Virus record (IMG/VR): IMGVR_UViG_3300049489_000321
Coordinates: 1 to 64,000 of that record
Direction: 5' to 3' (one strand)
DNA: 64,000 nucleotides
From: a virus
Below, in pieces: positions 1 to 17,416 of this stretch. The notes below the pieces were generated by a model. It searched no databases. It was not told where the DNA came from and saw only the letters and a list, made by a program, of their open reading frames with translations. Made by a program: the position numbers and the translations under genes. How positions within the stretch are numbered: the first letter of the stretch is position 1; every line of letters begins with the position of its first letter.

Positions 1-1
1 T

Positions 2-229
<228 letters not shown>

Positions 230-249
230 CAAAGAAAAGGATAATACTC

Positions 250-6312: not shown

Positions 6313-6313
6313 C

Positions 6314-6385
6314 GTGGTGATTTTGTTTACTGTCATTCTCGCGTGGTTTGTCGGATTCGCGATGCTCGCAATGGTTCGGACCTAG
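6314..6385 (+). CDS. Possible tiny membrane protein, 23 aa
   Basis: Starting at GTG 6314 directly after the previous stop, the frame encodes an almost wholly hydrophobic peptide (ILFTVILAWFVGFAMLAMV) ending RT-stop. Length fits one membrane segment. It lacks a strong ribosome site, so it is tentative. Confidence 0.35.
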   Translation: MVILFTVILAWFVGFAMLAMVRT

Positions 6386-6489
6386 CGTTAGAACGCTATA
6401 GGCTGGCGTATGGGAAGCTTTTAGCGTCCTAGCGTGGATAGGGTATACCCGCGCCTTTCGCTGCTTAAATCGAAGCCTATCGCCTCGGA
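6386..6489 (+). ncRNA. Structured non-coding stretch, repeated modules
   Basis: ACGCTA (about 6394) can pair with TAGCGT and GATAGG with CCTATC. GGGTATACCC is an inverted repeat. AACGCTATAGGCT is the exact complement of 14113-14125. The 22-bp block 6462-6483, beginning TGCTTAAATCGAAG, recurs at 12307-12328. A block ending TATGGGAAGCTTT recurs near 9937-9955. These look like pieces of a diverged structured RNA family. Confidence 0.4.
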
Positions 6490-6514
6490 TAATTTTGTGG
6501 GAAAGTCTTAGGCG
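6490..6514 (+). repeat. 25-bp left-arm element, copy 9
   Basis: TAATTTTGT, GGGAAAG, TCTTAGGCG. The next gene begins 15 bases on, after AGGGAAAA. Confidence 0.8.
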
Positions 6515-6528
6515 AAAGGTAGGGAAAA

Positions 6529-6723
6529 ATGACGGTTACGACATTCTATCGAAAGCTCGAATTTTGCGATCGTTCTGATCTCGCTGATTTGCTTGACTAC
6601 GCTCGCGCTAAGCGTGGAAAATTGCTTAATAGCACGCTAAACCATACTAAAGATTGGAATCATCTAAAGGAATGGCATTTGGCATATAAGACTGTTTCCA
6701 ATCGAGTAGGATGGAAGCGGTAA
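6529..6723 (+). CDS. Hypothetical helical protein, 64 aa; paralogue of the gene at 5327
   Basis: ATG at 6529 follows GGTAGGGAAAA. The product shares the F...C-x-R-x-DL...DYA-x2-KRG...KDW pattern and overall length with the product at 5327. Its TAA (6721) starts copy 10 of the 25-bp element. Function unknown. Confidence 0.65.
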   Translation: MTVTTFYRKLEFCDRSDLADLLDYARAKRGKLLNSTLNHTKDWNHLKEWHLAYKTVSNRVGWKR

Positions 6724-6745
6724 CTTTGTAGGAAAGTCTTAGTCG
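6721..6745 (+). repeat. 25-bp left-arm element, copy 10
   Basis: TAACTTTGT, AGGAAAG, TCTTAGTCG. TAA is shared with the upstream stop. Confidence 0.75.
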
Positions 6746-6809
6746 CATACGGCAAATAGCCGGCCAGTAGAAGCGGCGTAGGATGCAACCATAACAAAAG
6801 GCAAACACA

Positions 6810-6986
6810 GTGGACCATAAGAATACGGATCGAATGATGGATCGGGCAATGCATGCGATTTGCCCGAATGACTACGAAAGGTTCGCGCTTAGGCTGGCGT
6901 ATACTCAAGATCCTGAATTGGCCCTGGTATTTGCCGATCAGCCTATCCACGATCTTGCTGATATCCTTCGCGTTATCGGTGATTAA
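6810..6986 (+). CDS. Hypothetical protein, 58 aa
   Basis: GTG at 6810 follows AAAAGGCAAACACA, the usual left-arm ribosome site. The acidic product has a DRMMDRAMHAICPNDYERF segment and appears helical. The stop overlaps the next ATG as TAATG. No family recognised. Confidence 0.6.
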   Translation: MDHKNTDRMMDRAMHAICPNDYERFALRLAYTQDPELALVFADQPIHDLADILRVIGD

Positions 6987-7210
6987 TGCTTATTAACTGG
7001 ATTCCATGGAATGACGCGGACGACGCAACGGATCGCGTTGATTCCCTTGCTAAATCCGCTTCACAGATCCTGAGTGAAAATTGTGAAATGGCATACAGTT
7101 GGACCGGCGATACACTTGTAATTGCTACGAAACTCTCAAACGGTACAACCGAACTAATCCATTGCAAAGTAATTGCGGAAGGCAAGATTCATGCCAATGA
7201 TCATCATTAG
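6986..7210 (+). CDS. Hypothetical protein, 74 aa
   Basis: ATG at 6986 overlaps the upstream stop as TAATG, so it is probably translated by re-initiation. The product has an acidic start (PWNDADDATDRVDSL) and a beta-like end (DTLVIATKLSNGTTELI). Function unknown. Confidence 0.6.
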   Translation: MLINWIPWNDADDATDRVDSLAKSASQILSENCEMAYSWTGDTLVIATKLSNGTTELIHCKVIAEGKIHANDHH

Positions 7211-7370
7211 TCGGCCACCTAGCATGGCACAATTGTTGCTTGAGATCCTTGATAACCCGTGGGGCAAGGGCCGACATTCGGGGAATCCAGATTATCGCGC
7301 CTGCTATCTTCTCGAAACCATTGACAAAAACCGCGAGCGGGACCACGGGATCCCTCGCGTGTTTGAGTAG
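7191..7370 (+). CDS. Hypothetical protein, 59 aa
   Basis: I prefer ATG 7191, seven bases after GGAAGG, over an in-frame TTG at 7173. It overlaps the end of the preceding gene. The product has a MAQLLLEILDNPWGKG helix and a charged tail. No family recognised. Confidence 0.55.
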   Translation: MPMIIISRPPSMAQLLLEILDNPWGKGRHSGNPDYRACYLLETIDKNRERDHGIPRVFE

Positions 7371-7381
7371 GAACAACGACA

Positions 7382-7561
7382 ATGATTAAGCCAGTTTGCG
7401 CGGGTAATTGCCTATCTAATTGTAATTCCACGGAAGTATTCGCGATCGACTCAAAGGGTTATGTTTATTGCGAAAAGCATTTCTTTCGTGGTCGCAAAGT
7501 AACAAAAGCAGAGCGAAAGCAGCTAATTGCAGGAAAACCGATCCGATACGATAGATTTTGA
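7382..7561 (+). CDS. Small Cys-containing protein, 59 aa
   Basis: ATG at 7382 follows AGGAACAACGACA. Cys at about 6, 10, 14 and 31 with a following His (YCEKH) suggest a zinc site. The basic tail (GRKVTKAERKQL) suggests nucleic-acid contact. Function unknown. Confidence 0.6.
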   Translation: MIKPVCAGNCLSNCNSTEVFAIDSKGYVYCEKHFFRGRKVTKAERKQLIAGKPIRYDRF

Positions 7562-7562
7562 G

Positions 7563-7587
7563 TAATTTTGTGGGAAAGCCTTAGGCG
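7563..7587 (+). repeat. 25-bp left-arm element, copy 11
   Basis: TAATTTTGT, GGGAAAG, CCTTAGGCG, just after the TGA of the 59-aa gene and five bases before the HNH gene. Confidence 0.75.
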
Positions 7588-7592
7588 CAAAC

Positions 7593-8027
7593 GTGAAAGT
7601 ATGTATATCCTGCAAAGTATTAAAGAGTAAATCCAGTGATTTCTCTATCAATTCCCGTCGTAAAGACGGATACAATACCATATGCAAAGAATGTAAAAAT
7701 ACATACAACGTTGCCTGGTATCAGCGAAACAAAGACGAGCATAAAAAGCGTAATAGGATAAACAATAAAAAATACAAGGATTTAGCGTATTCAATTGTAC
7801 GGGAAAAGAAAAGCAAACCTTGTAAAGATTGTGGTATTAGCTATCCTTATTACGTTATGGATTTCGATCATTTGCCTGGATTCACGAAACAATTCTGTAT
7901 AGCTACGGCTATATCAAGAGGCCGCCCTATCTCATTGATTCTTAAAGAAATCGAGAAGTGCGACGTAGTGTGCGCTAATTGTCACAGGATTAGGACGTTT
8001 AACAGAACTAACATTGCTTCCACCTAA
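7593..8027 (+). CDS. HNH-type endonuclease with zinc ribbons, 144 aa
   Basis: GTG at 7593. The N-terminus carries CISCKVLKSKSSDF...CKEC, a zinc-ribbon lead-in seen in many phage HNH proteins. The catalytic region is CKDCG...MDFDHLPG...CDVVCANCHRIRTFNR, with the DFDH and N-CH parts of the HNH fold visible. Such enzymes cut DNA and often act as homing elements. A-rich codons unlike its neighbours suggest recent arrival. Its last codons overlap the 5' end of tRNA-Arg. Confidence 0.85.
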   Translation: MKVCISCKVLKSKSSDFSINSRRKDGYNTICKECKNTYNVAWYQRNKDEHKKRNRINNKKYKDLAYSIVREKKSKPCKDCGISYPYYVMDFDHLPGFTKQFCIATAISRGRPISLILKEIEKCDVVCANCHRIRTFNRTNIAST

Positions 8028-8083
8028 GGATAGGGTGCCGGCCTTCTAAGCCAGCTAGTAAGGTTCAATTCCTTATGGAAGCA
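8016..8083 (+). tRNA. tRNA-Arg (anticodon TCT), short D arm
   Basis: GCTTCCA pairs perfectly with TGGAAGC, with discriminator A. The T arm is TAAGG-TTCAATT-CCTTA. The anticodon loop CTTCTAA gives TCT; its stem has one C-A mismatch. The D arm is reduced to CCT/AGG, so the whole is only 68 nt. The first 12 bases are also the end of the HNH gene. Functionality is likely but not certain. Confidence 0.6.
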
Positions 8084-8170
8084 CTAACAGGACGCACTTA
8101 GGGATCGAGTCCTATCTAGTTGTAATAACAACGAAATCCCCGGATAGGTGCAAAGCCTATCGCATTTGAA

Positions 8171-8195
8171 TAACTTTGTGAGATCGTCTTAACCG
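8171..8195 (+). repeat. 25-bp left-arm element, copy 12
   Basis: TAACTTTGT, GAGATCG, TCTTAACCG. It is preceded by the inverted repeat GATAGG...CCTATC at about 8143-8160. Confidence 0.75.
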
Positions 8196-8221
8196 TAACC
8201 TGAAACGGAAGTCAAACGCAA

Positions 8222-8389
8222 GTGAAAAGCTCAAAAAATGACTTGATCGAGGCCCTTAGGGCAATCGCGGTTATGCAGCAAGCTTACGGATCGCAGGGTG
8301 ACGCCTACGTGGCCCGCGAATGTCACAGGATCGCGGTAGGCGCTTTGCACGACGGTTGGCACGGCGTATCGCGTAACATAAAGCGTTAA
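8222..8389 (+). CDS. Hypothetical protein, 55 aa
   Basis: GTG at 8222 follows ACGGAAGTCAAACGCA. The product is a single likely helix bundle (DLIEALRAIAVMQQAYG...YVARECHRIAVGAL) with a basic end. No family recognised. Confidence 0.55.
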   Translation: MKSSKNDLIEALRAIAVMQQAYGSQGDAYVARECHRIAVGALHDGWHGVSRNIKR

Positions 8390-8433
8390 TTAATACAGTT
8401 AAAAACGCAAATCTAAGCGAAAGGCAAACGAAA

Positions 8434-8616
8434 ATGGCACGTAAGAGTAAATGGGATCGCGCATTTGACGCTTGTTTCTATGCCAATTCCCACGGAGTCC
8501 AGTTTAACATTATGGATCTGTCAAAGCTCCGTCGCGCGGTTAATGACGCAACGCTTTCTGGCGTAGATCTTGAAAGCGCCGTCAAGGCGGCAATCCAGGT
8601 TTACAGGACTAATTAA
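8434..8616 (+). CDS. Hypothetical protein, 60 aa
   Basis: ATG at 8434 follows GAAAGGCAAACGAAA. Basic N-terminus (MARKSKWDRAFDA) and a helical C-terminus (LESAVKAAIQVY). It sits three bases from the next gene. Function unknown. Confidence 0.6.
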   Translation: MARKSKWDRAFDACFYANSHGVQFNIMDLSKLRRAVNDATLSGVDLESAVKAAIQVYRTN

Positions 8617-8619
8617 GCA

Positions 8620-8802
8620 ATGGAAAAGCCTAAGCCTAATCCTACTCCTAAGCAAGTGATCGACGCGATCACGCAAGCTTTCCCCAATGATTGCGAGCGT
8701 ATCCTTAGGGATATGCGATGGGATTCTATCAACGGCTGTTATATGTTTGATTTCGCTGGTATGTATGTCGGTTGCGAGCTTGACGGTTACATTCACTCTT
8801 AA
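8620..8802 (+). CDS. Hypothetical protein, 60 aa
   Basis: ATG at 8620 comes three bases after the previous stop. The product begins with a Pro/Lys-rich segment and continues QVIDAITQAFPNDCERIL, then a Tyr/Gly-rich end. No family recognised. Its TAA directly abuts copy 13 of the element. Confidence 0.6.
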   Translation: MEKPKPNPTPKQVIDAITQAFPNDCERILRDMRWDSINGCYMFDFAGMYVGCELDGYIHS

Positions 8803-8827
8803 TAATTTTGTGAGATCGTCTTAACCG
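8803..8827 (+). repeat. 25-bp left-arm element, copy 13
   Basis: TAATTTTGT, GAGATCG, TCTTAACCG. The last 16 bases are identical to copy 12. Confidence 0.8.
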
Positions 8828-8853
8828 TAACCCAAGCGGAAAGGCAAAGCCAA

Positions 8854-8991
8854 ATGGAAGCCGTTAATATCTTTATCCTGGAAATGCTGTTTACCGCTAC
8901 CGTGGCGGCATTCCACACTAACCCCACGGAAGCTAACAATCGCGCGGTAGTCCAGGTGTTTACTACCCTTTACGCTATTCGCGGAGCTTAA
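8854..8991 (+). CDS. Small hypothetical protein, 45 aa
   Basis: ATG at 8854 follows GCGGAAAGGCAAAGCCAA. The product begins with a hydrophobic stretch (VNIFILEMLFTATVAAF) that could be a short membrane helix, then a soluble tail. Function unknown. Confidence 0.5.
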   Translation: MEAVNIFILEMLFTATVAAFHTNPTEANNRAVVQVFTTLYAIRGA

Positions 8992-8994
8992 ACA

Positions 8995-9177
8995 ATGACC
9001 GATAGAGATAAGCAGATTAAGGAGCTTGAGCAATCCGGCCACCTTGATCCTAATTGCAGAGGATGTAAGGAGTTTTACGATCATCCCGATCTCAGGCCCT
9101 TTGCTCCATCCCATAAGGCTATGCAATCGTGCCAATCTGGCAAGCGTAATCATTGCACTTGCGACACTTGCTTCTAG
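8995..9177 (+). CDS. Small zinc-binding phage protein, 60 aa
   Basis: ATG at 8995. The CRGCKEFYDH...C and HCTCDTCF elements give five Cys and several His, typical of a compact zinc-binding domain seen in small phage proteins. The charged N-terminus (DRDKQIKELEQSGH) is helical. Role unknown. Confidence 0.65.
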   Translation: MTDRDKQIKELEQSGHLDPNCRGCKEFYDHPDLRPFAPSHKAMQSCQSGKRNHCTCDTCF

Positions 9178-9193
9178 CAAAAGGTATACCATA

Positions 9194-9265
9194 GTGGCCC
9201 ACCTAATCATCGGGATGATCCTGCTAGCGTTTATTCAGGCAAGAAACACTCCACCCTTTACCTAA
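9194..9265 (+). CDS. Possible tiny membrane protein, 23 aa
   Basis: GTG at 9194 follows AAAAGGTATACCATA. The peptide is hydrophobic in its first half (HLIIGMILLAFIQA) and ends in a polar PPFT. This is short for a gene, but the ribosome site is good. Confidence 0.4.
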   Translation: MAHLIIGMILLAFIQARNTPPFT

Positions 9266-9281
9266 GCCATAGGTATACCAA

Positions 9282-9476
9282 ATGCCCGATAACATTGCGT
9301 TTTACTACCGTGGAATGATAGAGCGGCCTTCAAAGCGTGGATATCGCTGGCATTACGGATATTCCGCGAATAGCGACGACGGTAATCCGCTTTACCCCTG
9401 GAATACGAAAGCAGAATGCAAGGCATATGCCAAGGCGCAAGGTAAGCAGGCTAGCTTTATCAGCGAGAAAGGCTAA
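9282..9476 (+). CDS. Hypothetical protein, 64 aa
   Basis: ATG at 9282 after AGGTATACCAA. The aromatic, basic product (FYYRGMIERPSKRGYRWHYGY) ends in a helix with many Lys and Ala, resembling small DNA-binding or AP2-like folds only loosely. No family assigned. Confidence 0.6.
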   Translation: MPDNIAFYYRGMIERPSKRGYRWHYGYSANSDDGNPLYPWNTKAECKAYAKAQGKQASFISEKG

Positions 9477-9495
9477 CCGTAAGGAATCTAGCACG

Positions 9496-9660
9496 ATGGA
9501 TCAACGTACAAAGAATCGAATCAAAGAGCATGCCAAGTTAGGACACAAGCTAACAGAGTCGAAAGCATTGACTACCAGGCCAGGGCAAGCGTTTTTTAGG
9601 TGCGATTGCGGATGGTTAGGATGGTTGACAGTCAATTCCGCTGGTAAGTTAACCACTTAA
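9496..9660 (+). CDS. Hypothetical protein with CDCGW motif, 54 aa
   Basis: ATG at 9496 follows GTAAGGAATCTAGCACG; a longer in-frame reading from 9337 overlaps the previous gene and is rejected. The C-terminus FRCDCGWLGWL resembles one half of a zinc ribbon. Function unknown. Confidence 0.6.
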   Translation: MDQRTKNRIKEHAKLGHKLTESKALTTRPGQAFFRCDCGWLGWLTVNSAGKLTT

Positions 9661-10022
9661 CACAATAACCAGTAAAAACAGTGGAAAACTAAACAATTAC
9701 TAGGAGTCCAGCACCCCCCGAGCTATAAGTACCGGAAATTATTATAGGTTGCAAAATTATGCCCGTGGTAAGCGTATGCAAGTCATGCGCCAGGCCTTGA
9801 CTCCCCGGACGCGGGGTAGGGTGCGAATCCCTTGGCGGGTCTCTTTGCAAATATTGTACCAATGGGATCGCTTGCCTGGTAGCGGGCTAGACGGGTCCGT
9901 TTCCCATGGTCCTGATACCGCGTAGAACGCGATAGGCTGCGATATGGGAAGCTTTCCAGGCATGGGGCTATCGTCGGCGTCTAGCTGGAATCCCTAGCCT
10001 ACAGGAGCGTAGGACGGTCCGA
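9661..10022 (+). other. Gene-poor stretch with tRNA-like and structured segments
   Basis: No confident gene. A 46-codon frame (9785-9925, basic) is possible but lacks a ribosome site. CCCCG-GACG-CGGGG next to AGGG-TGCGAAT-CCCT looks like a variable arm plus T arm of a class II tRNA, yet no good anticodon arm can be drawn. Three reverse-oriented sigma-54-like sites lie at 9750-9764, 9777-9792 and 9846-9861. Blocks shared with 6386-6489 and 11632-11726 (TATGGGAAGCTTT, GTAGGACGGTCCGATAA) occur here. Confidence 0.45.
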
Positions 10023-10047
10023 TAACTTTGTGGGATGATCCTAGACG
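10023..10047 (+). repeat. 25-bp left-arm element, copy 14
   Basis: TAACTTTGT, GGGATGA, TCCTAGACG, following GTAGGACGGTCCGA, a segment also found before copy 18. Confidence 0.75.
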
Positions 10048-10079
10048 CAACCTGCAACGCTCCAACGGAAGGCAAAGCA

Positions 10080-10235
10080 ATGTCAAAGGTTCCTAGCAGC
10101 AAGATCCTCACCGCTAACGCGCGCCTGCATAAGCTTGAACTCAGGCTCGCGATTCTCACTAAGGAATGCCGCGAGATCCCTCCTACGCTCGCGCACGAAA
10201 TCCGCGTTGCGCGGCTGATGATGGTCGCTAAGTAA
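10080..10235 (+). CDS. Small basic helical protein, 51 aa
   Basis: ATG at 10080 follows AACGGAAGGCAAAGCA. The product is almost entirely helical and basic (NARLHKLELRLAILTKECREI), consistent with a small coiled or DNA-binding peptide. An upstream in-frame ATG at 10035 lies in the 25-bp element and is rejected. Confidence 0.6.
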   Translation: MSKVPSSKILTANARLHKLELRLAILTKECREIPPTLAHEIRVARLMMVAK

Positions 10236-10247
10236 GCGGAACGATTA

Positions 10248-10317
10248 GACTATGCGTCGGGTGGCGCGGACCATCCTACAATGGACAGCGGTTATAACGC
10301 TTCCCCGACGCATAGTC
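10248..10317 (+). ncRNA. Three-way-junction structured element
   Basis: GACTATGCGTCGGG pairs perfectly (14 bp) with CCCGACGCATAGTC. The 42 enclosed bases form two more hairpins, CCAT/ATGG and AGCG-GTTATAA-CGCT. This gives a compact three-way junction between a gene and copy 15. It may be a small RNA or a 3'-end structure. Confidence 0.55.
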
Positions 10318-10326
10318 CCTCACAAG

Positions 10327-10351
10327 TAATTCTGTGGGATCGTCCTAGGCG
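10327..10351 (+). repeat. 25-bp left-arm element, copy 15
   Basis: TAATTCTGT, GGGATCG, TCCTAGGCG: exact consensus. Confidence 0.8.
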
Positions 10352-10379
10352 CAATCTCTCAAACGGAAGGCAAAGGCAA

Positions 10380-10568
10380 ATGACTACCAATCGCCGGATC
10401 TACATTCTTTGTCCTAACTGCAATCAGGATGCCATTCTTACCCCCGACGGGGCAATCGCTTGGCATGAAGGTACAAAAACTGCAATGTTGCCGGCGCCGC
10501 CTGCTAGCCGTTGCGCGGTTTCCGGCATGACTGAGAAAGCGGCGGATCGGCTGGTTTGGGGCAAGTAA
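10380..10568 (+). CDS. Hypothetical protein with CPNC motif, 62 aa
   Basis: ATG at 10380 follows ACGGAAGGCAAAGGCAA; an in-frame ATG at 10281 lies in the structured element and is rejected. CPNCNQDA near residue 10 and one later Cys hint at a partial zinc ribbon. The C-terminus is helical. Role unknown. Confidence 0.6.
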   Translation: MTTNRRIYILCPNCNQDAILTPDGAIAWHEGTKTAMLPAPPASRCAVSGMTEKAADRLVWGK

Positions 10569-10581
10569 GCGGAATCACTAA

Positions 10582-10604
10582 CCCTCCCCCGATTTGGGGG
10601 AGGG
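10582..10604 (+). terminator. G/C hairpin, copy A
   Basis: CCCTCCCCC-GATTT-GGGGGAGGG, a perfect 9-bp G/C stem 13 bases after a stop codon and without a T run. The loop GATTT could alternatively pair with the nearby AATC of the 5' flank. Confidence 0.55.
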
Positions 10605-10674
10605 ACGGGACTAGGGGTTTCAACGGGTTAGATCCCACGGATCGGTGGGGGAATGACTGCAAACGCTGGATTGT

Positions 10675-10794
10675 GTGAGATCGGGCGCTAAGCTTTCCGA
10701 TGATTTGCAGGCGATTTGGCGATTGCTGGCGAGCTTTTCCGGGGCTAATGGGCCGATGGTAGGGTCAAAAGATCGTCGCTCTGAAGCGAGCTAA
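10675..10794 (+). CDS. Doubtful small protein, 39 aa
   Basis: A GTG-started frame encodes a basic helical peptide ending in VGSKDRRSEAS. The last 24 bases of its conserved part (10761-10784) recur at 15161-15184, where the frame is broken. It may therefore be a real gene with a decayed copy elsewhere, or part of a repeated RNA element. No ribosome site is evident. Confidence 0.3.
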   Translation: MRSGAKLSDDLQAIWRLLASFSGANGPMVGSKDRRSEAS

Positions 10795-10827
10795 TCGATT
10801 CATGCAAGAATCGTGCCAAGTAGAGAG

Positions 10828-10852
10828 TAATTCTGTGGGATCGTCTTAGGTG
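10828..10852 (+). repeat. 25-bp left-arm element, copy 16
   Basis: TAATTCTGT, GGGATCG, TCTTAGGTG. The preceding bases, GCAAGAATCGTGCCAAG and GAGAG, recur before copy 21 (13171-13194). Confidence 0.75.
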
Positions 10853-10881
10853 TCCCGACGCTGAAACGAAAGGCAATCACT

Positions 10882-11088
10882 ATGGATTTCGATGATTTCT
10901 GTCGCATGCTGCTTAACCGTCGGAAGCTTAACGGTATGTCGAATGCGGATATCGCTCGCGATCTCAAGCTTGGCAACGATCACGCTCGGCAAATGGTTGT
11001 AAACATTATCGATATTCTCGATCTTCCGGTGCCGACGAGCAACGGTGAATCCATCCCGCCTGTATCCGGTGAAATCGATTGGCGTTAG
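10882..11088 (+). CDS. Hypothetical helix-turn-helix-like protein, 68 aa
   Basis: ATG at 10882 follows ACGAAAGGCAATCACT. Residues about 12-40 (LNRRKLNGMSNADIARDLKLGNDHARQMV) have the helix-turn-helix rhythm A-x3-L-x-L-x6-V, so DNA binding is plausible. The tail is Pro-rich. No exact family recognised. Confidence 0.6.
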   Translation: MDFDDFCRMLLNRRKLNGMSNADIARDLKLGNDHARQMVVNIIDILDLPVPTSNGESIPPVSGEIDWR

Positions 11089-11093
11089 GCGAG

Positions 11094-11118
11094 TAATTCT
11101 GTGAGATCGTCTTAGGCG
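11094..11118 (+). repeat. 25-bp left-arm element, copy 17
   Basis: TAATTCTGT, GAGATCG, TCTTAGGCG: exact consensus. Confidence 0.8.
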
Positions 11119-11151
11119 CAACCTGCAACCTGCAACGGAAGGCAAAGACAA

Positions 11152-11412
11152 ATGGACAATATCATTCTCGCGCTCGCCACCGAGTATCGTCGCCAGTGTA
11201 AGATCGCTCACGGTTGGCGCGATTACAACGGTCGTTTGACCGGGATGGGGATGGACGCGGTGCGCAAGGCGGATAAGTGCCTGGATATGCTGCGCGCTTA
11301 CGGTTATCGTTTCGACTCGGAAGATAGCCTGTTTTTCGATCATAACCTCGCGGAATCGCTTGATATTCCAACGGTCCTGTGGCCGGAAGCGGCCGACGAT
11401 CAGGACGATTAA
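11152..11412 (+). CDS. Hypothetical acidic protein, 86 aa
   Basis: ATG at 11152 follows ACGGAAGGCAAAGACAA. The N-terminal half is helical (LATEYRRQCKIAHGW...DAVRKADKCLDMLRAYG). The C-terminus ends EAADDQDD. No family recognised. Confidence 0.65.
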   Translation: MDNIILALATEYRRQCKIAHGWRDYNGRLTGMGMDAVRKADKCLDMLRAYGYRFDSEDSLFFDHNLAESLDIPTVLWPEAADDQDD

Positions 11413-11429
11413 CTAGCTGAAATCACTAA

Positions 11430-11452
11430 CCCTCCCCCGATTTGGGGGAGGG
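11430..11452 (+). terminator. G/C hairpin, copy B
   Basis: Same CCCTCCCCC-GATTT-GGGGGAGGG as at 10582, also preceded by AATCACTAA, 17 bases after a stop codon. Confidence 0.55.
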
Positions 11453-11473
11453 TAACAAGCAAAGGGCATGCCA

Positions 11474-11638
11474 ATGCGAGTCAACGCACTCGGCCAGTGT
11501 CACCCGGAATGCAGGTTCTGTGCCGTCGAATTTTGGGCCTGGTATAAGGCTAGGATGACACAAATGGCGCGACCTATGCCGGGTGCGCGTGAATCGTTCG
11601 CCGATGCGGCTGCTAGATCGGTGCGTCCTAAGCGATAG
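11474..11638 (+). CDS. Small protein with CHPECRFC motif, 54 aa
   Basis: ATG at 11474 lies eight bases after AAAGGG. Residues 9-16 (CHPECRFC) resemble a metal-binding knuckle. The rest is helical and basic. Unlike most left-arm genes it is not preceded by a 25-bp element but by hairpin copy B, so it probably belongs to the transcript of the 86-aa gene. Confidence 0.6.
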   Translation: MRVNALGQCHPECRFCAVEFWAWYKARMTQMARPMPGARESFADAAARSVRPKR

Positions 11639-11726
11639 GCTGCGATTTGCGAGCGTTTCAGACAACGGACAGGGAAAGACTAGGGTACGGGTCCAGTGAC
11701 CTTCTACGCGAGGTAGGACGGTCCGA

Positions 11727-11751
11727 TAATTCTGTGTAAACGTCCTAGGCG
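11727..11751 (+). repeat. 25-bp left-arm element, copy 18
   Basis: TAATTCTGT, GTAAACG, TCCTAGGCG, after the GTAGGACGGTCCGA segment shared with copy 14. Confidence 0.8.
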
Positions 11752-11786
11752 CAACCTGCAACGCTCCAACGGAAAGCGATAAAACA

Positions 11787-11933
11787 ATGATCAAGGTACG
11801 CATTAATAGGATTGGCAATCTCTACGTTCTAGTTAACGCGGAAAATGGCTTTCCAGTGTCTACTCCTACGGATAATCTGCCCGCTGCAAAGGCTGCGCTT
11901 AGCAGGCTGATTTCGCAGGGAAAGGCTAAGTAA
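11787..11933 (+). CDS. Small hypothetical protein, 48 aa
   Basis: ATG at 11787 follows ACGGAAAGCGATAAAACA. The product opens MIKVRINRIGNLYVLVN (beta) and ends in a basic helix. The next gene begins two bases after its stop. No family recognised. Confidence 0.55.
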   Translation: MIKVRINRIGNLYVLVNAENGFPVSTPTDNLPAAKAALSRLISQGKAK

Positions 11934-11934
11934 A

Positions 11935-12156
11935 ATGATTACTATTGAACGCAAAGGTAGAAGTGTGAGTGGCGGGCGCCTTTGGCACGTTTTTTGCGAC
12001 GGTGATCTCGTGGGGCACGTGGTTGAGCTTTCCGTATCTGAACCAATGTTTGGATCTGGCGCACCACTGTATGCGGTCCACGCGGATCGTGCAAACCCGG
12101 GCAGTTATGAGCTTGTGTCGGATTGGAGCGAAGTCCCATCCTATTTTAATCAGTAG
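11935..12156 (+). CDS. Hypothetical protein, 73 aa
   Basis: ATG at 11935, two bases after the previous stop, within AGGCTAAGTAAAATG. Probably beta-rich (GRLWHVFCDGDLVGHVVELSV). Function unknown. Confidence 0.6.
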   Translation: MITIERKGRSVSGGRLWHVFCDGDLVGHVVELSVSEPMFGSGAPLYAVHADRANPGSYELVSDWSEVPSYFNQ

Positions 12157-12468
12157 GTTAGCGGATCGTGCAAAGGCTAGAGCGTAGGCAAACCGTGGAA
12201 AACGCGATTTGCCTACACTAGTAATGTCGGGCGCTTACGCTTCAAACTCGCTACGCTCGCGCATTTTTCCCTAGGGATCGGGGAAAGGGTAGGGGCAAAC
12301 AAAAGGTGCTTAAATCGAAGCCTATCGCATCATGCAAGAAACATGCCAAGTAATGTCGAGTAGCTATTAGCTAGACTGTAGTGTTATAAGTAGGTATTAG
12401 GTGATGCAATCTGTATGCCAATGATTAGCCGATCTGCGGGCAGGCCCGCCGTTCGTCTCCTGCTGGAG
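12157..12468 (+). other. Gene-free stretch with hairpins and sigma-54-like sites
   Basis: No credible gene. GTAGGCAAA pairs with TTTGCCTAC around 12184-12217, and GCGGGC with GCCCGC near 12437-12450. The 22-bp block at 12307-12328 is shared with 6462-6483. Reverse sigma-54-like sites lie at 12333-12348 and 12405-12420. Confidence 0.5.
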
Positions 12469-12493
12469 TGATTAGGACACTCTCACAAAGTTA
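12469..12493 (-). repeat. 25-bp left-arm element, inverted copy
   Basis: On the minus strand this reads TAACTTTGT, GAGAGTG, TCCTAATCA, the only copy pointing left. It sits two bases from a pair of forward sigma-54-like sites, with forward copy 19 on the other side, forming a roughly symmetric arrangement. Leftward output would enter the gene-free stretch. Confidence 0.6.
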
Positions 12494-12494
12494 T

Positions 12495-12527
12495 TGGCAC
12501 GGATCGTGCTAAGGCACGTTTATTGCT
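12495..12527 (+). promoter_or_regulatory. Two sigma-54-like sites in tandem
   Basis: TGGCACGGATCGTGCT (12495-12510) and AGGCACGTTTATTGCT (12512-12527) both have the GG and GC pairs ten bases apart, as in -24/-12 promoters. They face the 44-aa gene at 12568 but a 25-bp element lies between. Confidence 0.55.
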
Positions 12528-12543
12528 AGGACACCCAATCGGA

Positions 12544-12568
12544 TAACTTTGTATAAACGTCCTAGGCA
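12544..12568 (+). repeat. 25-bp left-arm element, copy 19, abutting a start codon
   Basis: TAACTTTGT, ATAAACG, TCCTAGGC, with the A of the next ATG as last base, exactly as in copy 7. Confidence 0.75.
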
Positions 12569-12702
12569 TGACTCACTCAATCATCTGGAATCGTAACGGT
12601 TGGCAGGTCCTCACCACTTGCGGTGATCTTGAGGTTTCCGCTGCAATCTTCGATACTTACGGTGAGTGTCTTTCCTATTACGTTGAAATGATGGGAGCGT
12701 AA
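12568..12702 (+). CDS. Small hypothetical protein, 44 aa
   Basis: The ATG is fused to copy 19 and there is no room for a normal ribosome site, so a leaderless message is possible. The product (SIIWNRNGWQVLTTCGDLEV) looks beta-rich. Function unknown. Confidence 0.5.
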   Translation: MTHSIIWNRNGWQVLTTCGDLEVSAAIFDTYGECLSYYVEMMGA

Positions 12703-12703
12703 C

Positions 12704-12946
12704 ATGACGCATCATGCTAAGGTCGCGAGACTATTGAAGCTTCACCGAATGATTCGCGCTCGCGCGCATATCTGGCACGATAATTGCGAGAAGTACGCAG
12801 ATCCGCGCATGCCTCGAATGGATCGTTGGATGGAAGAATACGACAGCATGCGTCTTTGTAACGGAACCTACAGTGACGCTTGGCTCGAATATTGCGGGAT
12901 CACTAACGGTGCCGTGACGCATCATGCGGGCGATTTGCTTTCATAA
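12704..12946 (+). CDS. Hypothetical His-rich protein, 80 aa
   Basis: ATG at 12704 follows GGGAGCGTAAC. Both ends carry THHA (MTHHAK..., ...VTHHAGD). The middle is basic and helical (RLLKLHRMIRARAHIWHDN). No family recognised. Confidence 0.6.
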   Translation: MTHHAKVARLLKLHRMIRARAHIWHDNCEKYADPRMPRMDRWMEEYDSMRLCNGTYSDAWLEYCGITNGAVTHHAGDLLS

Positions 12947-12965
12947 ACTGTGCCGAGTAGCGGAA

Positions 12966-12990
12966 TAATTCTGTATGGGAGTCTTTGACA
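12966..12990 (+). repeat. 25-bp left-arm element, copy 20 (diverged, overlaps a start)
   Basis: TAATTCTGT is intact and the second block is AGTCTTTGACA. The next gene's ATG (12975) lies inside the element. Confidence 0.5.
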
Positions 12991-13190
12991 TGCACCACGC
13001 GAAACCCGAGGATTTCACTAGGTGGGCTGAAAAGGCCGCTTCTATGTCACTGGAATCATTGAATTGGTCTATCAATGATTGTTGGCAGGCTAGCCTTTGC
13101 GCTCGCGAAATTGGCAACGCAATTGCAGAGGGTAGATATCTAGACGAAATGTATGCATACGCTAGCGAGCGCAAGAATCGTGCCAAGTAG
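12975..13190 (+). CDS. Hypothetical protein, 71 aa
   Basis: ATG at 12975 is inside element copy 20; ATG 12990 is the alternative start. The product is helical (FTRWAEKAASMSLESLNW) and ends ASERKNRAK. That end, at DNA level, contains the GCAAGAATCGTGCCAAG segment also found before copy 16 without a gene, suggesting a decayed copy there. Confidence 0.6.
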   Translation: MGVFDMHHAKPEDFTRWAEKAASMSLESLNWSINDCWQASLCAREIGNAIAEGRYLDEMYAYASERKNRAK

Positions 13191-13194
13191 AGAG

Positions 13195-13219
13195 TAATTG
13201 TGTAGGCTAGTCTTAGTCA
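13195..13219 (+). repeat. 25-bp left-arm element, copy 21
   Basis: TAATTGTGT, AGGCTAG, TCTTAGTCA. Confidence 0.7.
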
Positions 13220-13248
13220 CAAGCAACGCAAACCCCGGAGCTAAGACA

Positions 13249-13431
13249 ATGACGCTTTTCGAAGAGTTTGAGGATCGTTACGGTGATGAGCGTATCTCTG
13301 CGAAGGAAGCGATTAGGCTCTGTAAGTTTCATGGCACGGATATTGCCGAGTATCACAAGTATTCGGGATACACTGCTAAGTTGTCGGAATCATACGATTG
13401 GCAGGCAATCCTGATCTGGCTCGGTTACTAG
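13249..13431 (+). CDS. Hypothetical protein, 60 aa
   Basis: ATG at 13249 follows CCCGGAGCTAAGACA. An in-frame upstream ATG at 13198 falls in the element. The product (LFEEFEDRYGDERISAKEAIRLC) is acidic and helical. Function unknown. Confidence 0.6.
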   Translation: MTLFEEFEDRYGDERISAKEAIRLCKFHGTDIAEYHKYSGYTAKLSESYDWQAILIWLGY

Positions 13432-13469
13432 CAACAAACGTACCAACTCAGAAAACAAGGAAAGTCACA

Positions 13470-13691
13470 ATGACTGTCGCTATTTACACGTTTGTTTGTA
13501 CGCTTGAAGATGGAATCCGTAAGGATCGTTTGAGTAACTTCGAAATGGCACTCTGTGCAAAGCACGTGCCAAAGAATGCTAAGCTTGCACGTCGCGCGCC
13601 AGATTGTCACTGTGAGCTTTGTACCTACAATGAAGATCGAGAGTGTAACAAGGGATTTGGCACGAATGATGAATATCACGGTGGTTGGTAA
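13470..13691 (+). CDS. Cys-rich zinc-binding-like protein, 73 aa
   Basis: ATG at 13470 follows AAGGAAAGTCACA. The Cys/His set C10...C28-x2-H...CHCELC...C gives a probable zinc site. Its TAA is the first part of element copy 22. No family recognised. Confidence 0.6.
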   Translation: MTVAIYTFVCTLEDGIRKDRLSNFEMALCAKHVPKNAKLARRAPDCHCELCTYNEDRECNKGFGTNDEYHGGW

Positions 13692-13713
13692 TTTTGTAGG
13701 GAAGTCCTAGTCG
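13689..13713 (+). repeat. 25-bp left-arm element, copy 22
   Basis: TAATTTTGT, AGGGAAG, TCCTAGTCG. TAA is shared with the upstream stop codon. Confidence 0.75.
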
Positions 13714-13759
13714 CAACCTCTGAATCCCGACGAGTCGTCTAAGTAGGCTAAATCATTAA

Positions 13760-13782
13760 CCCTCCCCCAAATCGGGGGAGGG
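13760..13782 (+). terminator. G/C hairpin, copy C with inverted loop
   Basis: CCCTCCCCC-AAATC-GGGGGAGGG, the exact reverse complement of copies A and B, with the same AATCAYTAA flank. It precedes a gene by 18 bases. Confidence 0.5.
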
Positions 13783-13799
13783 TAGAAAGGCAAGCGTAA

Positions 13800-14018
13800 G
13801 TGCTCAAATTCACTAATGAAGAATGTAACAAGCTGGAAACACTCAAGCTTCTAGTTGACGCAGAGTGGCAAAATTTCGGAGGTTATCTTAGATACACGGA
13901 TGCTATGAATATTGTTGGGCTTTCTACGCTGAAGAAAGCTATCAAGCTGAATTTAATCGTCCATTTCAAGGGATCGGATTGGATCGATACTTGCTACACT
14001 AACAGACTGTACAAGTAG
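13800..14018 (+). CDS. Hypothetical protein, 72 aa
   Basis: GTG at 13800 follows GAAAGGCAAGCGTAA. The product is helical, and RYTDAMNIVGLSTLKKAIKLNLI resembles an excisionase-type winged helix (short helix, turn, recognition helix), so a DNA-binding role is possible. Not certain. Confidence 0.55.
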   Translation: MLKFTNEECNKLETLKLLVDAEWQNFGGYLRYTDAMNIVGLSTLKKAIKLNLIVHFKGSDWIDTCYTNRLYK

Positions 14019-14028
14019 TTGTAATTAC

Positions 14029-14128
14029 ATAAACGCTCTAGAATGACCTAGGAGCGACGATTTAGCAGGGTAGGCTAGTCTGCTAGGGTAGAGAGAAACC
14101 CGCTCCTACGTGAGCCTATAGCGTTATA
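14029..14128 (+). ncRNA. Structured non-coding element with nested stems
   Basis: AACGCT/AGCGTT close an outer stem, AGGAGCG/CGCTCCT a middle stem (14050-14056 with 14101-14107) and AGCAG/CTGCT an inner one. AGCCTATAGCGTT at 14113 is the complement of a segment in 6386-6489, so this may be an inverted relative of that element. Confidence 0.45.
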
Positions 14129-14173
14129 CGAGAGATCTAGTCAATCTTCCTGGTAGCAAAGGACTAAACCACT

Positions 14174-14290
14174 GTGATCAATGATTACAATACGTTGGAA
14201 GCCGTTAGGCATTTGCTCGTACTTGGCCCGATTGTTGCTTTGTCTGTCATACTCTTGACCGGAATCCTGTATCTGGCGATTCGCCAGTAA
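14174..14290 (+). CDS. Small membrane protein, 38 aa
   Basis: GTG at 14174. After a short polar start the peptide has one clear membrane segment (LLVLGPIVALSVILLTGILYLA) and ends IRQ. No family recognised. A single-span peptide of this size could modify a host membrane protein, but that is speculation. Confidence 0.5.
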   Translation: MINDYNTLEAVRHLLVLGPIVALSVILLTGILYLAIRQ

Positions 14291-14717: not shown

Positions 14718-14963
14718 ATGACCGCTAAGACCCGATATGTTGGCATGAAGGCCGCAATGCACCGCCACCGCGACGCTTGCGAGTGGTCGGAAGGTAGCAG
14801 CGAACGTATTAGCCGAGCTAATGACACGCTTCGAGCCGACATTGCTAAGTATGGGGAATTGTACTACAACGCGCTCTGTACCAGTCAAGGTGCTGATATC
14901 CTTGCCAATCGTCGCCCGGGCGACGCAATCGCTCGTGCCCGTAGCGCATCGATTCCCTTCTAA
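14718..14963 (+). CDS. Hypothetical protein, 81 aa
   Basis: ATG at 14718 follows ACGGAGAAAACGAAA. Mostly helical with many Arg, Ala and Ser. It is the last gene of the rightward left arm; its stop codon lies inside a long nested hairpin. Function unknown. Confidence 0.6.
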   Translation: MTAKTRYVGMKAAMHRHRDACEWSEGSSERISRANDTLRADIAKYGELYYNALCTSQGADILANRRPGDAIARARSASIPF

Positions 14964-15029: not shown

Positions 15030-15202
15030 GAAGTCTTTGCAGCCTGGTAGCAGGGGTCAAAAACGTCAAGATCCGCCCGATCCTACCGTAGCAATTACAC
15101 CATGGTAGGACCCTAATAGGCTACGCTCAAGCGATTTCCGCCCCGAGTAGCGTCCTAGCTAGGGTCAAAAGATCGTCGCTCTGAGAGCATCCTACGCATT
15201 CA
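15030..15202 (+). other. Gene-free stretch before the array
   Basis: No gene. It contains the 24-bp block shared with 10761-10784 (here 15161-15184), a CCTGGTAGC segment also seen at about 9877 and 14150, and a palindrome at 15099-15108 (ACCATGGTAG). Confidence 0.5.
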
Positions 15203-15247
15203 AGCAATCCCTATGCCAATCCTCGATCTCTAGCACGTCTTATGCCA
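15203..15247 (-). promoter_or_regulatory. Two reverse sigma-54-like sites
   Basis: On the minus strand: TGGCATAGGGATTGCT (15203-15218) and TGGCATAAGACGTGCT (15232-15247). Both keep GG and GC with ten-base spacing. Confidence 0.6.
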
Positions 15248-15288
15248 ACCATGGTAGTACACTATCCTACACCCTACTACCTATTAGG

Positions 15289-15406
15289 TGGCACGACTCT
15301 TGCTAAGGCACGCTTATTGCTAGGACTACTGTGTTGGCATACTTGTTGCGAGCATCGAATCTGGTACGAATACTGCATATAGCACTACCATGGTACGGAT
15401 CTTGCA
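15289..15406 (+). promoter_or_regulatory. Sigma-54-like array, forward run 1 (5 sites)
   Basis: Sites start at 15289, 15306, 15335, 15362 and 15391. The first reads TGGCACGACTCTTGCT, matching the classical YTGGCACG-N4-TTGCW consensus. Others vary only at tolerated positions (TGGTACGGATCTTGCA). Spacing is 17 to 29 bases. Confidence 0.75.
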
Positions 15407-15420
15407 TCAATACAGGCACT

Positions 15421-15667
15421 TGCAACAATCGTGCCAAACATACATGTATGCAAAAGACGTACCATGGTGACTGTTTGCAAGAATCATACCAACTATAGGA
15501 CGTGCAATAAGCATACCAGTCACAGCTATTGCAACATTTATGCCAATTATCAACGTATTGCAAGAATCGAGCCAAAAAAGACACACAGCAGTACGTGCAA
15601 ATTCTATGCCAACCCTACCATGGTGCAACATCTGTGCCAAAACAGGGGGTATGCAATAACAGGGCCA
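15421..15667 (-). promoter_or_regulatory. Sigma-54-like array, reverse run (9 sites)
   Basis: Minus-strand sites begin (left ends) at 15421, 15449, 15476, 15503, 15530, 15559, 15596, 15624 and 15652. Examples are TGGCACGATTGTTGCA and TGGCATAAATGTTGCA. All but one step is 27-29 bases, so the run is nearly periodic. Confidence 0.75.
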
Positions 15668-15697
15668 CTACCATGGTAGGACACTATACTACACAGT

Positions 15698-15988
15698 AGG
15701 CACAACTCTTGCTAGTACGTACTAGTTGGCACGTATAGTGCTATAGGCATACATATTGCACACAATAACAGCATTTTGGCACGCTTATTGCTAAGGCACG
15801 AATGTTGCAACAAAGCTAATTTGGCACAGTACGTGCATACACTGGGTGGCACACCCCCTGCATACCCTACCATGCTGGCATCTCACTTGCATACGACCGA
15901 CATTCACCTACCCCACCCTAGTTCGCGTGGCACGTTTCTTGCATATCCACCCGTATCCCGTCTCAACCGAAGTGGCACGATACTTGCA
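15698..15988 (+). promoter_or_regulatory. Sigma-54-like array, forward run 2 (10 sites)
   Basis: Sites start at 15698, 15727, 15745, 15777, 15794, 15822, 15847, 15876, 15928 and 15973. TGGCACGCTTATTGCT, TGGCACGTTTCTTGCA and TGGCACGATACTTGCA are textbook matches. Rightward transcription from them would run antisense into the leftward genes from 16217, which argues that not all serve as ordinary gene promoters. Confidence 0.75.
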
Positions 15989-16216: not shown

Positions 16217-16453
16217 TTAACGTAGGTGCTTGGCAGATTCTAGTATAAGTACAAAAGCATGTTCGTCTGCTACGTCCTTACACTCCCGTTGAGTCTGTCC
16301 ACTACCTATTCGCTTGTTCTCGTAGCTAACTATATACGACTCTGGTCTGGTTAAACCACCGTAAATAGGGGATATTACATACTTACCGCAATGAGAGTAT
16401 ACGTAGTGTTCCTTAGCACGCTGCCACTCTATAATGCTCTGATAGCAGTTCAT
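16217..16453 (-). CDS. Hypothetical protein, 78 aa
   Basis: Last gene of the leftward run, one base after the preceding gene. The product has aromatic and basic residues (CYQSIIEWQRAKEHYVY) and beta-like SPIYGGLTRPESYIVSYENKR. No family recognised. Confidence 0.65.
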   Translation of the reverse strand: MNCYQSIIEWQRAKEHYVYSHCGKYVISPIYGGLTRPESYIVSYENKRIGSGQTQRECKDVADEHAFVLILESAKHLR

Positions 16454-16454
16454 G

Positions 16455-16661
16455 TTAGTAGAATTTCATCCACGTGAAGTAGATGGGAATGTCTGGGTAT
16501 AGTAGCGCCATGGAAGCACGTATTAGGTTAGCATCTTCTTTGTTGTAGCACTCAAACTGGATGCCGTCTCTAGCCTTGGGGTTTGTACGGTACTCATGTG
16601 CAGCTTTAGCGCATAGCTTAAGGTTACTTCTTGTAACTAGTTGATGTTCGTAGTCATTCAT
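16455..16661 (-). CDS. Hypothetical protein, 68 aa
   Basis: Overlaps the Thg1-like gene by ATGA, so translation is coupled. RSNLKLCAKAAHEYRTNPKA is helical, and YNKEDANLIRASMALLYPD could contact tRNA or another protein. Unknown. Its tight link to the Thg1-like gene makes a shared process possible. Confidence 0.65.
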   Translation of the reverse strand: MNDYEHQLVTRSNLKLCAKAAHEYRTNPKARDGIQFECYNKEDANLIRASMALLYPDIPIYFTWMKFY

Positions 16662-17416
16662 CTCTTTCCCTCCACTGTAGGCTCCATTAGATAGACTAGG
16701 GTGTTAATGTAGTTGCGGTCTTGTGTAAGGATAGGCATGTCTAGGTCTTCTCGCCACTCAGACCGTTCAGCACTACCGTTGTAGTACTTATACTTAACAA
16801 TCGCTATACCGCGCTTCTGCGCCGTAGGGCAGTCGTTCCAGTTAACGTTCTCCCTGGCTAAGAGCATGTTCTGCATCATGTTGCTGTTAACCTTGTGTAA
16901 TTGCTTGTGACTAAAGTACTTCTGCGCTAACATTGCGATGCTGTTCCTAGTTGCATCTTGTTGTCTCCAGATGAAGTAGTTACAGACTTCCGACTGTGGG
17001 ACGTTCCAAACCCTACAGTCGAAGCTAGGGAGGCTTTTGGGGTAGCCGAACCTCTTTACGTACTCTTCGTAGAACTTCACGCTGGCCATGCTGGCGGCGA
17101 TAGAGCACGTCTTTTGTACTTCGTTGTCAAACCAGCCTTGGGTCTGTAGGTTCTGGTAGTCCACCAATAGCAACGATATCTCGTCGCTTTGAGTGTAAGC
17201 AATCTTACAACCGGAGACTTCCTTACACAGATACTTGGCAGTCTCCACCATGCAGTGAACCATACGCTCATCTAAAGGTCTTTCCATGCCTCTAGTAAAC
17301 GTGTGGAAAGCCCTACCGTCTAGCCTCATTAGCACGGGCATTTTGGATACTAATTTTGTCCGGGGAGTGTTTTCGTACGATTTCATACGATCCCCTAAGC
17401 TATCTTTATTACTCAT
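16658..17416 (-). CDS. Thg1-like 3'-5' nucleotidyltransferase (tRNAHis guanylyltransferase family), 252 aa
   Basis: The first 100 residues match the Thg1 catalytic core: LGDRMKSYE, then PVLMRLDGRAFHTFTRG (metal ligand Asp33, Gly34), then KIAYTQSDEISLLL (second metal ligand Asp78). QKTCSIAASMASVKF follows, as in the family. These enzymes add nucleotides in the 3'-5' direction, either G-1 on tRNAHis or, for Thg1-like proteins of bacteria and phages, repair of truncated tRNA 5' ends using a template. Length is normal. It lies in a coupled cluster about 1.1 kb downstream of tRNA-Asn and tRNA-Thr, which supports a tRNA-repair role. Confidence 0.9.
   Translation of the reverse strand: MSNKDSLGDRMKSYENTPRTKLVSKMPVLMRLDGRAFHTFTRGMERPLDERMVHCMVETAKYLCKEVSGCKIAYTQSDEISLLLVDYQNLQTQGWFDNEVQKTCSIAASMASVKFYEEYVKRFGYPKSLPSFDCRVWNVPQSEVCNYFIWRQQDATRNSIAMLAQKYFSHKQLHKVNSNMMQNMLLARENVNWNDCPTAQKRGIAIVKYKYYNGSAERSEWREDLDMPILTQDRNYINTLVYLMEPTVEGKR

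What the first reader, a model, noticed from the sequence alone, without database searches (positions are those of the whole stretch)
15203..15988. Dense, near-periodic array of about 26 sigma-54 (-24/-12)-like promoter sites in a phage intergenic region
Seen: sixteen-base matches to TGGCAC-N5-TTGCW with GG and GC ten bases apart. They come in four runs of alternating orientation (2 reverse, 5 forward, 9 reverse, 10 forward), at 27-29-base steps in the reverse run. Known: YTGGCACG-N4-TTGCW is the RpoN consensus, and such promoters are normally single and need an activator. Inference: too many, too close and facing both ways to be gene promoters. A sponge that captures host sigma-54 holoenzyme (or an activator), a replication or partition locus with sigma-54-like iterons, or a switch of transcription direction all fit. 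I know of no described phage element of this kind.
Basis: partly seen in the sequence, partly recalled or inferred. Interest (0 to 1): 0.95.

Follow-up and report, generated by a model that had tools for sequence, protein, structure and literature searches.

The report
Host sigma-54 binding-site array in phage
A virus of bacteria carries 26 tightly packed copies of the DNA landing site for a host transcription factor (sigma-54), and similar arrays turn up in many unrelated uncultured phages but almost never in bacterial chromosomes, which points to an undescribed way for phages to capture or exploit that host factor.

Summary
In detail: 26 sites in runs 2-, 5+, 9-, 10+ (cores 15204-15987). They are true RpoN-type -24/-12 elements by two independent tests. 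A matrix made only from the 26 phage sites puts all ten known sigma-54 promoters within 88 kb of E. coli DNA among its top 12 of 175,784 positions. A matrix made from published E. coli sigma-54 ChIP-seq sites finds 24 sites in the array (0.04 in shuffles), 18 more at 5.9-14.2 kb (0.15 in shuffles) and 2 in the other ~134 kb of this 147.5-kb, SPO1-like virus record. The element is general. At least 120 IMG/VR stretches hold triple arrays, against 1 for the reversed pattern, while 84,980 bacterial and archaeal genomes hold one plausible array. In one phage family the bases that contact sigma-54 are 97% conserved in both orientations, the spacers 77%. Site orientation ignores flanking genes; in the window the array lies between convergent genes and faces no gene start. 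No record checked encodes sigma-54 or a sigma-54 activator. Most likely it is a multi-copy binding platform (decoy) that captures host sigma-54 holoenzyme. That it binds sigma-54 is nearly certain; titration is inferred. I found no description of such an element.

The parts
15204..15246 (-). run 1: two reverse sigma-54-like cores (15204-15217, 15233-15246)
   Evidence: E. coli RpoN matrix
15290..15405 (+). run 2: five forward cores (15290-15303, 15307-15320, 15336-15349, 15363-15376, 15392-15405)
15422..15666 (-). run 3: nine reverse cores (starts 15422, 15450, 15477, 15504, 15531, 15560, 15597, 15625, 15653), mostly 27-29 bp apart
15699..15987 (+). run 4: ten forward cores (starts 15699, 15728, 15746, 15778, 15795, 15823, 15848, 15877, 15929, 15974)
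5937..14239 (.). 18 isolated sigma-54-like sites in the adjacent small-gene region (17-mer starts 5937+, 7181-, 7224+, 9417-, 9777-, 9846-, 10803-, 11458-, 11982+, 12333-, 12405-, 12494+, 12772+, 13170-, 13331+, 13430-, 13556-, 14223+); 7 sense and 11 antisense to the + strand genes
   Evidence: shuffle mean 0.15, max 1; + strand coding supported by upstream ribosome-site-like motifs
15099..15677 (.). six ACCATGGT palindromes interleaved with the array (15099, 15248, 15387, 15461, 15617, 15670); those at 15387 and 15461 overlap sigma-54-like cores; possible second regulatory site
   Evidence: 7 in the window, 0.76 expected
14718..14963 (+). last small + strand gene before the array (81 aa, no Pfam or PHROG match)
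16217..16453 (-). first - strand ORF after the array (78 aa, no family match); flanking genes converge on the array
16658..17416 (-). tRNA-His guanylyltransferase (Thg1) gene near the array; context only
   Evidence: Pfam PF04446 E=9e-33; PHROG 4717 E=1.5e-101

Best explanation
The segment is an array of high-quality recognition sites for the host's sigma-54 (RpoN), packed close to the spacing one bound complex needs, and kept by selection for binding rather than for promoting neighbouring genes. Most likely it works as a DNA decoy. When the phage genome enters, and more so once it is copied, the array and the 18 extra sites nearby bind host sigma-54 (with or without core RNA polymerase) in closed complexes that stay silent without an activator. 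That would draw sigma-54 away from host promoters such as envelope-stress (phage-shock), nitrogen, motility and surface-structure genes. Shown here: sigma-54 site identity, enrichment, presence across many phages, purifying selection in both orientations, independence from gene direction, and no detected phage-encoded sigma-54 or activator. Inferred: actual binding, simultaneous occupancy, titration, and benefit to the phage.
For: (1) Site identity: a matrix from only the 26 phage sites ranks hypA, hycA, astC, glnH, zraP, pspA, norV, glnA, hydN and zraS promoters at 1,3,4,5,6,7,8,9,11,12 of 175,784 positions in 88 kb of MG1655. Its score correlates with measured sigma-54 ChIP occupancy over 100 E. 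coli sites, Spearman 0.45, p=2e-6 (data from PMC4591121). (2) Strength: the array sites score like genuinely bound E. coli sites (median 16.2 versus 16.3). (3) Generality: triple arrays in at least 120 IMG/VR stretches in tandem and at least 120 in alternating form, 1 for the reversed pattern; one plausible array among 20 hits in 84,980 bacterial and archaeal genomes, the rest being plain tandem repeats with near-identical units. (4) Selection: among related phages the eight critical bases per site are 97% identical in both orientations, other positions inside the motif 78%, spacers 77%. (5) Orientation ignores genes: 119 sense versus 111 antisense (p=0.64) in arrays between co-directional genes; end sites face inward at both ends more often than outward, 39 versus 16 (p=0.003). 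In the window no gene starts on either side of the array. (6) Narrow spacing across 131 arrays: tandem 25-29 bp, convergent 17-21, divergent 23-26 and 33-36. (7) No PF00158 or PF04552 in the own record or 49 array-bearing virus records. (8) Holoenzyme-promoter affinity of about 3 nM and silence without activator are published (PMC7064336, PMC4591121).
Against: No binding or expression data exist. In many podovirus-like contigs the array sits upstream of the terminase genes at or near a divergent gene junction (TerL transcribed away from it in 93 of 94 loci), where promoters would be expected, and sites pointing away from TerL outnumber those pointing to it, 332 to 241. A simple sponge does not need the preferred, roughly helical spacing seen for divergent pairs. 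Whole holoenzymes could probably not occupy all 26 sites at once. The window phage's host and its rpoN are unknown. In Salmonella, loss of rpoN makes cells more resistant to two phages (PMC8744999), so removing sigma-54 activity does not always help a phage.
Confidence: 0.5

Rival explanations
1. Promoter hub. The sites are working sigma-54 promoters; many copies raise the chance that a holoenzyme is loaded, and host activators fire transcription outward in both directions, tying phage expression to host nutrient or stress state.
For: Perfect sigma-54 promoter grammar; 93 of 94 arrays with TerL lie upstream of it and divergent flanks are the commonest class, 45 of 102; more sites point away from TerL (332 versus 241).
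Against: In the window no gene starts on either side. Orientation is unrelated to gene direction and end sites face inward more often than outward. Convergent pairs 17-21 bp apart put each start site inside the partner's recognition element. No phage activator was found. The isolated sites at 5.9-14.2 kb are 7 sense, 11 antisense.
Confidence: 0.25
2. Silencer, lock or insulator. Closed sigma-54 holoenzymes cover the region and block other promoters or elongating polymerase, keeping converging or diverging transcription units apart until activators or phage factors clear them.
For: Sigma-54 closed complexes are stable, and sigma-54 represses promoters it overlaps (stated with references in PMC4591121). 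In the window the array lies exactly between converging gene blocks; elsewhere often between diverging blocks.
Against: Sigma-54 bound inside E. coli genes did not act as a roadblock (PMC4591121). The window array is far from the start of either flanking gene block, and only one weak sigma-70-like match, fewer than in shuffles, was found.
Confidence: 0.13
3. Iteron-like operators for a phage-encoded replication, partition or repressor protein whose recognition sequence happens to resemble the RpoN consensus.
For: Dense near-regular arrays in one main intergenic region per genome, often with inverted pairs, look like origin or operator arrays.
Against: Phages sharing no detected proteins in the fetched stretches, with locus G+C from 31 to 64%, keep one motif. 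That motif predicts E. coli sigma-54 promoters and correlates with ChIP occupancy; a phage protein would be expected to drift in specificity.
Confidence: 0.08

Closest known systems
Bacterial sigma-54 (-24/-12) promoters, consensus YTGGCACGrNNNTTGCW
   Same: Same 16-17 bp element, same spacing, recovered both ways between E. coli and phage matrices.
   Different: Host promoters are mostly single, upstream of and oriented to a gene, with an activator. Here there are 26 in 0.8 kb, in both orientations, with no gene downstream.
Intragenic and antisense sigma-54 binding sites of E. coli (PMC4591121)
   Same: Sigma-54 sites away from gene starts, most apparently silent under the tested conditions; some conserved only at the critical bases, as here.
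   Different: Dispersed single sites with a sense bias, not dense intergenic arrays.
Decoy-site arrays that titrate a DNA-binding protein (datA for DnaA, operator arrays on multicopy plasmids; own knowledge)
   Same: Many copies of a recognition site in non-coding DNA, orientation-independent.
   Different: Here the target would be a host sigma factor and the carrier a phage; I know of none described.
SPO1 host-takeover module in the terminal redundancy of Bacillus phage SPO1
   Same: The window phage has an SPO1-like portal (about 38-40% identity) and a region of many small genes next to the array.
   Different: SPO1 has one exact core match in 132.6 kb and no array; its small genes converge within the redundancy. 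No homology of the small genes was shown.
Phage proteins that disable host RNA polymerase or sigma (T7 Ocr, Xp10 P7)
   Same: Same goal if the decoy reading is right: interference with host sigma-54 transcription (PMC7064336, PMC5053324).
   Different: Those are proteins; this would be a DNA-only element.

Membership tests
sigma-54 (-24/-12) recognition element | GG at -24 and GC at -12 with invariant spacing, plus T at -25, W at -10 | tested here: met
   All 26 sites carry GG and TGC in register; T at -25 in 22 of 26 and W at -10 in 25 of 26
sigma-54 (-24/-12) recognition element | Matrix exchange with experimentally bound sites | tested here: met
   Phage matrix recovers all 10 E. coli promoters in its top 12; E. 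coli ChIP matrix finds 24 array sites against 0.04 in shuffles
sigma-54 (-24/-12) recognition element | Bound by sigma-54 or its holoenzyme | not testable with these tools
   Needs EMSA or ChIP
sigma-54-dependent gene promoter | Located upstream of and oriented towards a gene | tested here: not met
   Window: flanking genes converge on the array, no gene starts there. Other phages: orientation independent of gene direction, 119 versus 111
sigma-54-dependent gene promoter | A cognate activator with upstream site | tested here: inconclusive
   No PF00158 protein in the own record or 49 array-bearing virus records, many of them fragments; a host activator cannot be excluded
Transcription-factor decoy array | Many high-affinity sites without gene-linked orientation, kept by selection | tested here: met
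Transcription-factor decoy array | Measurably lowers free factor and its regulon in vivo | not testable with these tools
   Needs a reporter titration experiment
Iteron origin or partition locus of a phage protein | A phage-encoded protein that binds the unit | not tested
   No candidate binder was identified; only sigma-54 and its activators were searched for

The most novel reading that the evidence does not exclude
Lytic phages of many kinds carry a DNA-only counter-measure: a dense array of sigma-54 recognition sites that captures host sigma-54 holoenzyme on the phage genome and shuts down or redirects the host sigma-54 regulon during infection.
Probability: 0.45. Interest if true: 0.95.

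Novelty: categorically new. Interest (0 to 1): 0.9.

Why it matters
Phages are known to attack host transcription with proteins. An array of binding sites that does so through DNA alone, and is found across many uncultured phages, would be a new class of phage element. It would point to sigma-54, the activator-dependent stress and envelope sigma factor, as a recurrent front line between phages and bacteria. It also gives a searchable DNA signature that suggests the host has rpoN. The titration idea can be tested directly in E. coli K-12 with a plasmid carrying the segment.

Tried and rejected
Relatives by DNA: none for the array or for window 1-24 kb beyond tRNA fragments. Portal-based search of IMG/VR found no relative. 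The phage does not carry its own detectable sigma-54 or activator. Array as a feature of isolated phages: nine distantly related phage genomes (SPO1, Exiguobacterium, Roseobacter, Vibrio, Aeromonas, Rhizobium, Pseudoalteromonas, HMO-2011, one uncultured) have 0-2 core matches each and no array. Array as a bacterial chromosomal feature or prophage: rejected, 19 of 20 triple hits in bacterial genomes are plain tandem repeats, several in actinobacteria. Array as a chance result of a degenerate pattern: rejected by the reversed-pattern scan. Array as a terminase packaging (pac) site: rejected for the window, where TerL lies at about 121-123 kb. Sigma-70 promoters or terminators in the segment: no more than in shuffles.

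Full report
Setting. The window is the first 64 kb of a 147,530-bp IMG/VR virus record; the rest was read as L004-L008. It is a contractile-tailed phage with an SPO1-like portal (best hits about 38-40% identity to Herelleviridae), a PHROG 675 terminase, tail sheath, phage-type DNA polymerase, DnaB-like helicase and UvsX-like recombinase. Both record ends fall in the same Ala/Asp/Tyr-rich repeat gene, so the map is probably circular and near complete. Small + strand genes run up to 14,963 and - strand genes begin at 16,217, so the array lies between convergent genes.

The observation. Outside the array, the exact core GGCAC-N5-TTGC occurs only at 3.1-13.6 kb in the whole record. With a matrix from 42 intergenic sigma-54 ChIP-seq sites of E. 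coli (PMC4591121), cut at their 25th percentile, the array has 24 sites (shuffle mean 0.04, at most 1 in 500), the region 3-15.2 kb has 18 (shuffle mean 0.15, at most 1 in 200) and the rest of the record has 2.

Identity of the motif. Base frequencies over the 26 sites give T-GG-[C/T]-A-[C/T]-[G/A]-NN-T-N-TTGC-[A/T]. Around 1,025 sites from other viral arrays, columns that were not used to select the sites follow the RpoN consensus: Y at -26 (0.78), T at -25 (0.91), W at -10 (0.90). The strongest test uses no bacterial training data: the matrix of the 26 phage sites, run over six MG1655 stretches (88 kb), ranks all ten known sigma-54 promoters present within its top 12. The score also correlates with ChIP occupancy (Spearman 0.45 over 100 sites). 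I treat sigma-54 site identity as established at the sequence level.

Generality. Pattern scans of IMG/VR for triple tandem and triple alternating arrays each reached the limit of 120 stretches; the same tandem pattern read backwards gave 1. A strict triple pattern over 84,980 bacterial and archaeal genomes gave 20 hits, of which 19 are simple tandem repeats with near-identical units and one (L144, a Dadabacteria MAG) has three varied sites; the flanking ORFs read there do not show it to be viral. In whole virus records nearly all sites lie in one array, with almost no reversed-pattern matches. In 153 loci with at least four varied sites, the commonest neighbouring families are TerL (94 loci), TerS-like (51), portal (41) and an endolysin-type peptidase (37) (PHROG support for TerL, portal and endolysin). 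TerL is transcribed away from the array in 93 of 94. Of 102 arrays with genes on both sides, 45 lie at divergent, 41 at co-directional and 16 at convergent junctions.

Selection and geometry. In aligned arrays of 17 related contigs, with motif columns defined from one row and identity measured in the others, the eight critical bases per site are 97% identical for sites of either orientation, the other motif positions 78% and the spacers 77% (alignment). Over 131 distinct arrays the spacings are narrow: tandem 25-29 bp, convergent 17-21, divergent 23-26 and 33-36. Divergent pairs keep a roughly helical phase at longer distances too; tandem and convergent pairs do not do so clearly. The fraction of alternating neighbours is partly set by how the loci were searched for, so I draw nothing from it.

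Promoter or platform. If the sites served as gene promoters they should face the genes. In arrays between co-directional genes 119 sites are sense and 111 antisense (p=0.64), and arrays with both end sites facing inward outnumber those with both facing outward, 39 to 16. In the window no gene starts on either side, and the isolated sites at 5.9-14.2 kb are 7 sense and 11 antisense to the + strand genes, whose direction is supported by upstream ribosome-site-like sequence. Convergent pairs 17-21 bp apart place each start point inside the partner's recognition element. No sigma-54 gene and no sigma-54 activator were found in the own record or in 49 array-bearing virus records, many of them fragments. 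These facts favour a binding platform. The excess of sites pointing away from TerL (332 versus 241) and the frequent divergent position keep the promoter hub alive.

Mechanism. I favour a decoy: sigma-54 holoenzyme binds promoters at about 3 nM and stays closed without an activator (PMC7064336, PMC4591121), so an array of promoter-grade sites that multiplies with the phage genome would hold it in silent complexes. E. coli has an estimated 250 or more sites in all (PMC4591121), so 42 per phage genome is a large addition even before replication. Which host functions are lowered is inference; phage-shock genes are a known sigma-54 target (PMC3844500). A caution is that rpoN loss in Salmonella raised resistance to two phages (PMC8744999). 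Titration itself was not tested.

Host. Unknown. Sequences resembling lipoprotein signals and a cysteine-rich secreted protein (ORFs 19555-19803, 20970-21323 and 22323-22679, all on the - strand) hint at a Gram-negative host, which is inference only; the nearest phages by portal and Thg1 infect Bacillus relatives, some of which also have a sigma-54.

Novelty. Ten literature searches in the held open library found no phage sigma-54 array. That library lacks most subscription papers, so novelty rests partly on my own knowledge.

Noticed in passing
15099-15677 (also 14655, 14975): Palindrome ACCATGGT occurs six times among the sigma-54 sites, 8 of the record's 39 CCATGG lie in 1.4 kb here, and two copies overlap sigma-54-like cores; perhaps a second regulator's operator.
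   Followed up: partly
window 1-230 and L008:3080-3530: Both record ends lie in the same Ala/Asp/Tyr-rich repeat gene, so the genome is probably circularly closed in the assembly apart from the repeat.
   Followed up: partly
16658-17416: Phage tRNA-His guanylyltransferase (Thg1), nearest to Bacillus phages (56% identity).
   Followed up: partly
record IMGVR_UViG_3300044723_000506 (loci L057, L066): This 36.6-kb record carries two related but different sigma-54 arrays, one at each end of the contig.
   Followed up: no
L071:1965-2252: A G+C-rich 55.9-kb virus record has ten same-strand sigma-54 sites at about 26-28 bp steps, all pointing the same way as a downstream gene; a candidate real promoter array.
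   Followed up: no
L144:4015-4085: A Dadabacteria MAG contig has three varied tandem sigma-54 sites upstream of no obvious gene; the MAG encodes several sigma-54 activators.
   Followed up: partly
22323-22679 (-): Cysteine-rich secreted protein with repeated CxxDxDC-like motifs and no Pfam match.
   Followed up: no
10882, 11152, 11935, 13800, 14380 (+): Several small genes share the leader AAAGGCAA or a close variant just before the start codon, an unusual shared ribosome-site-like motif.
   Followed up: no
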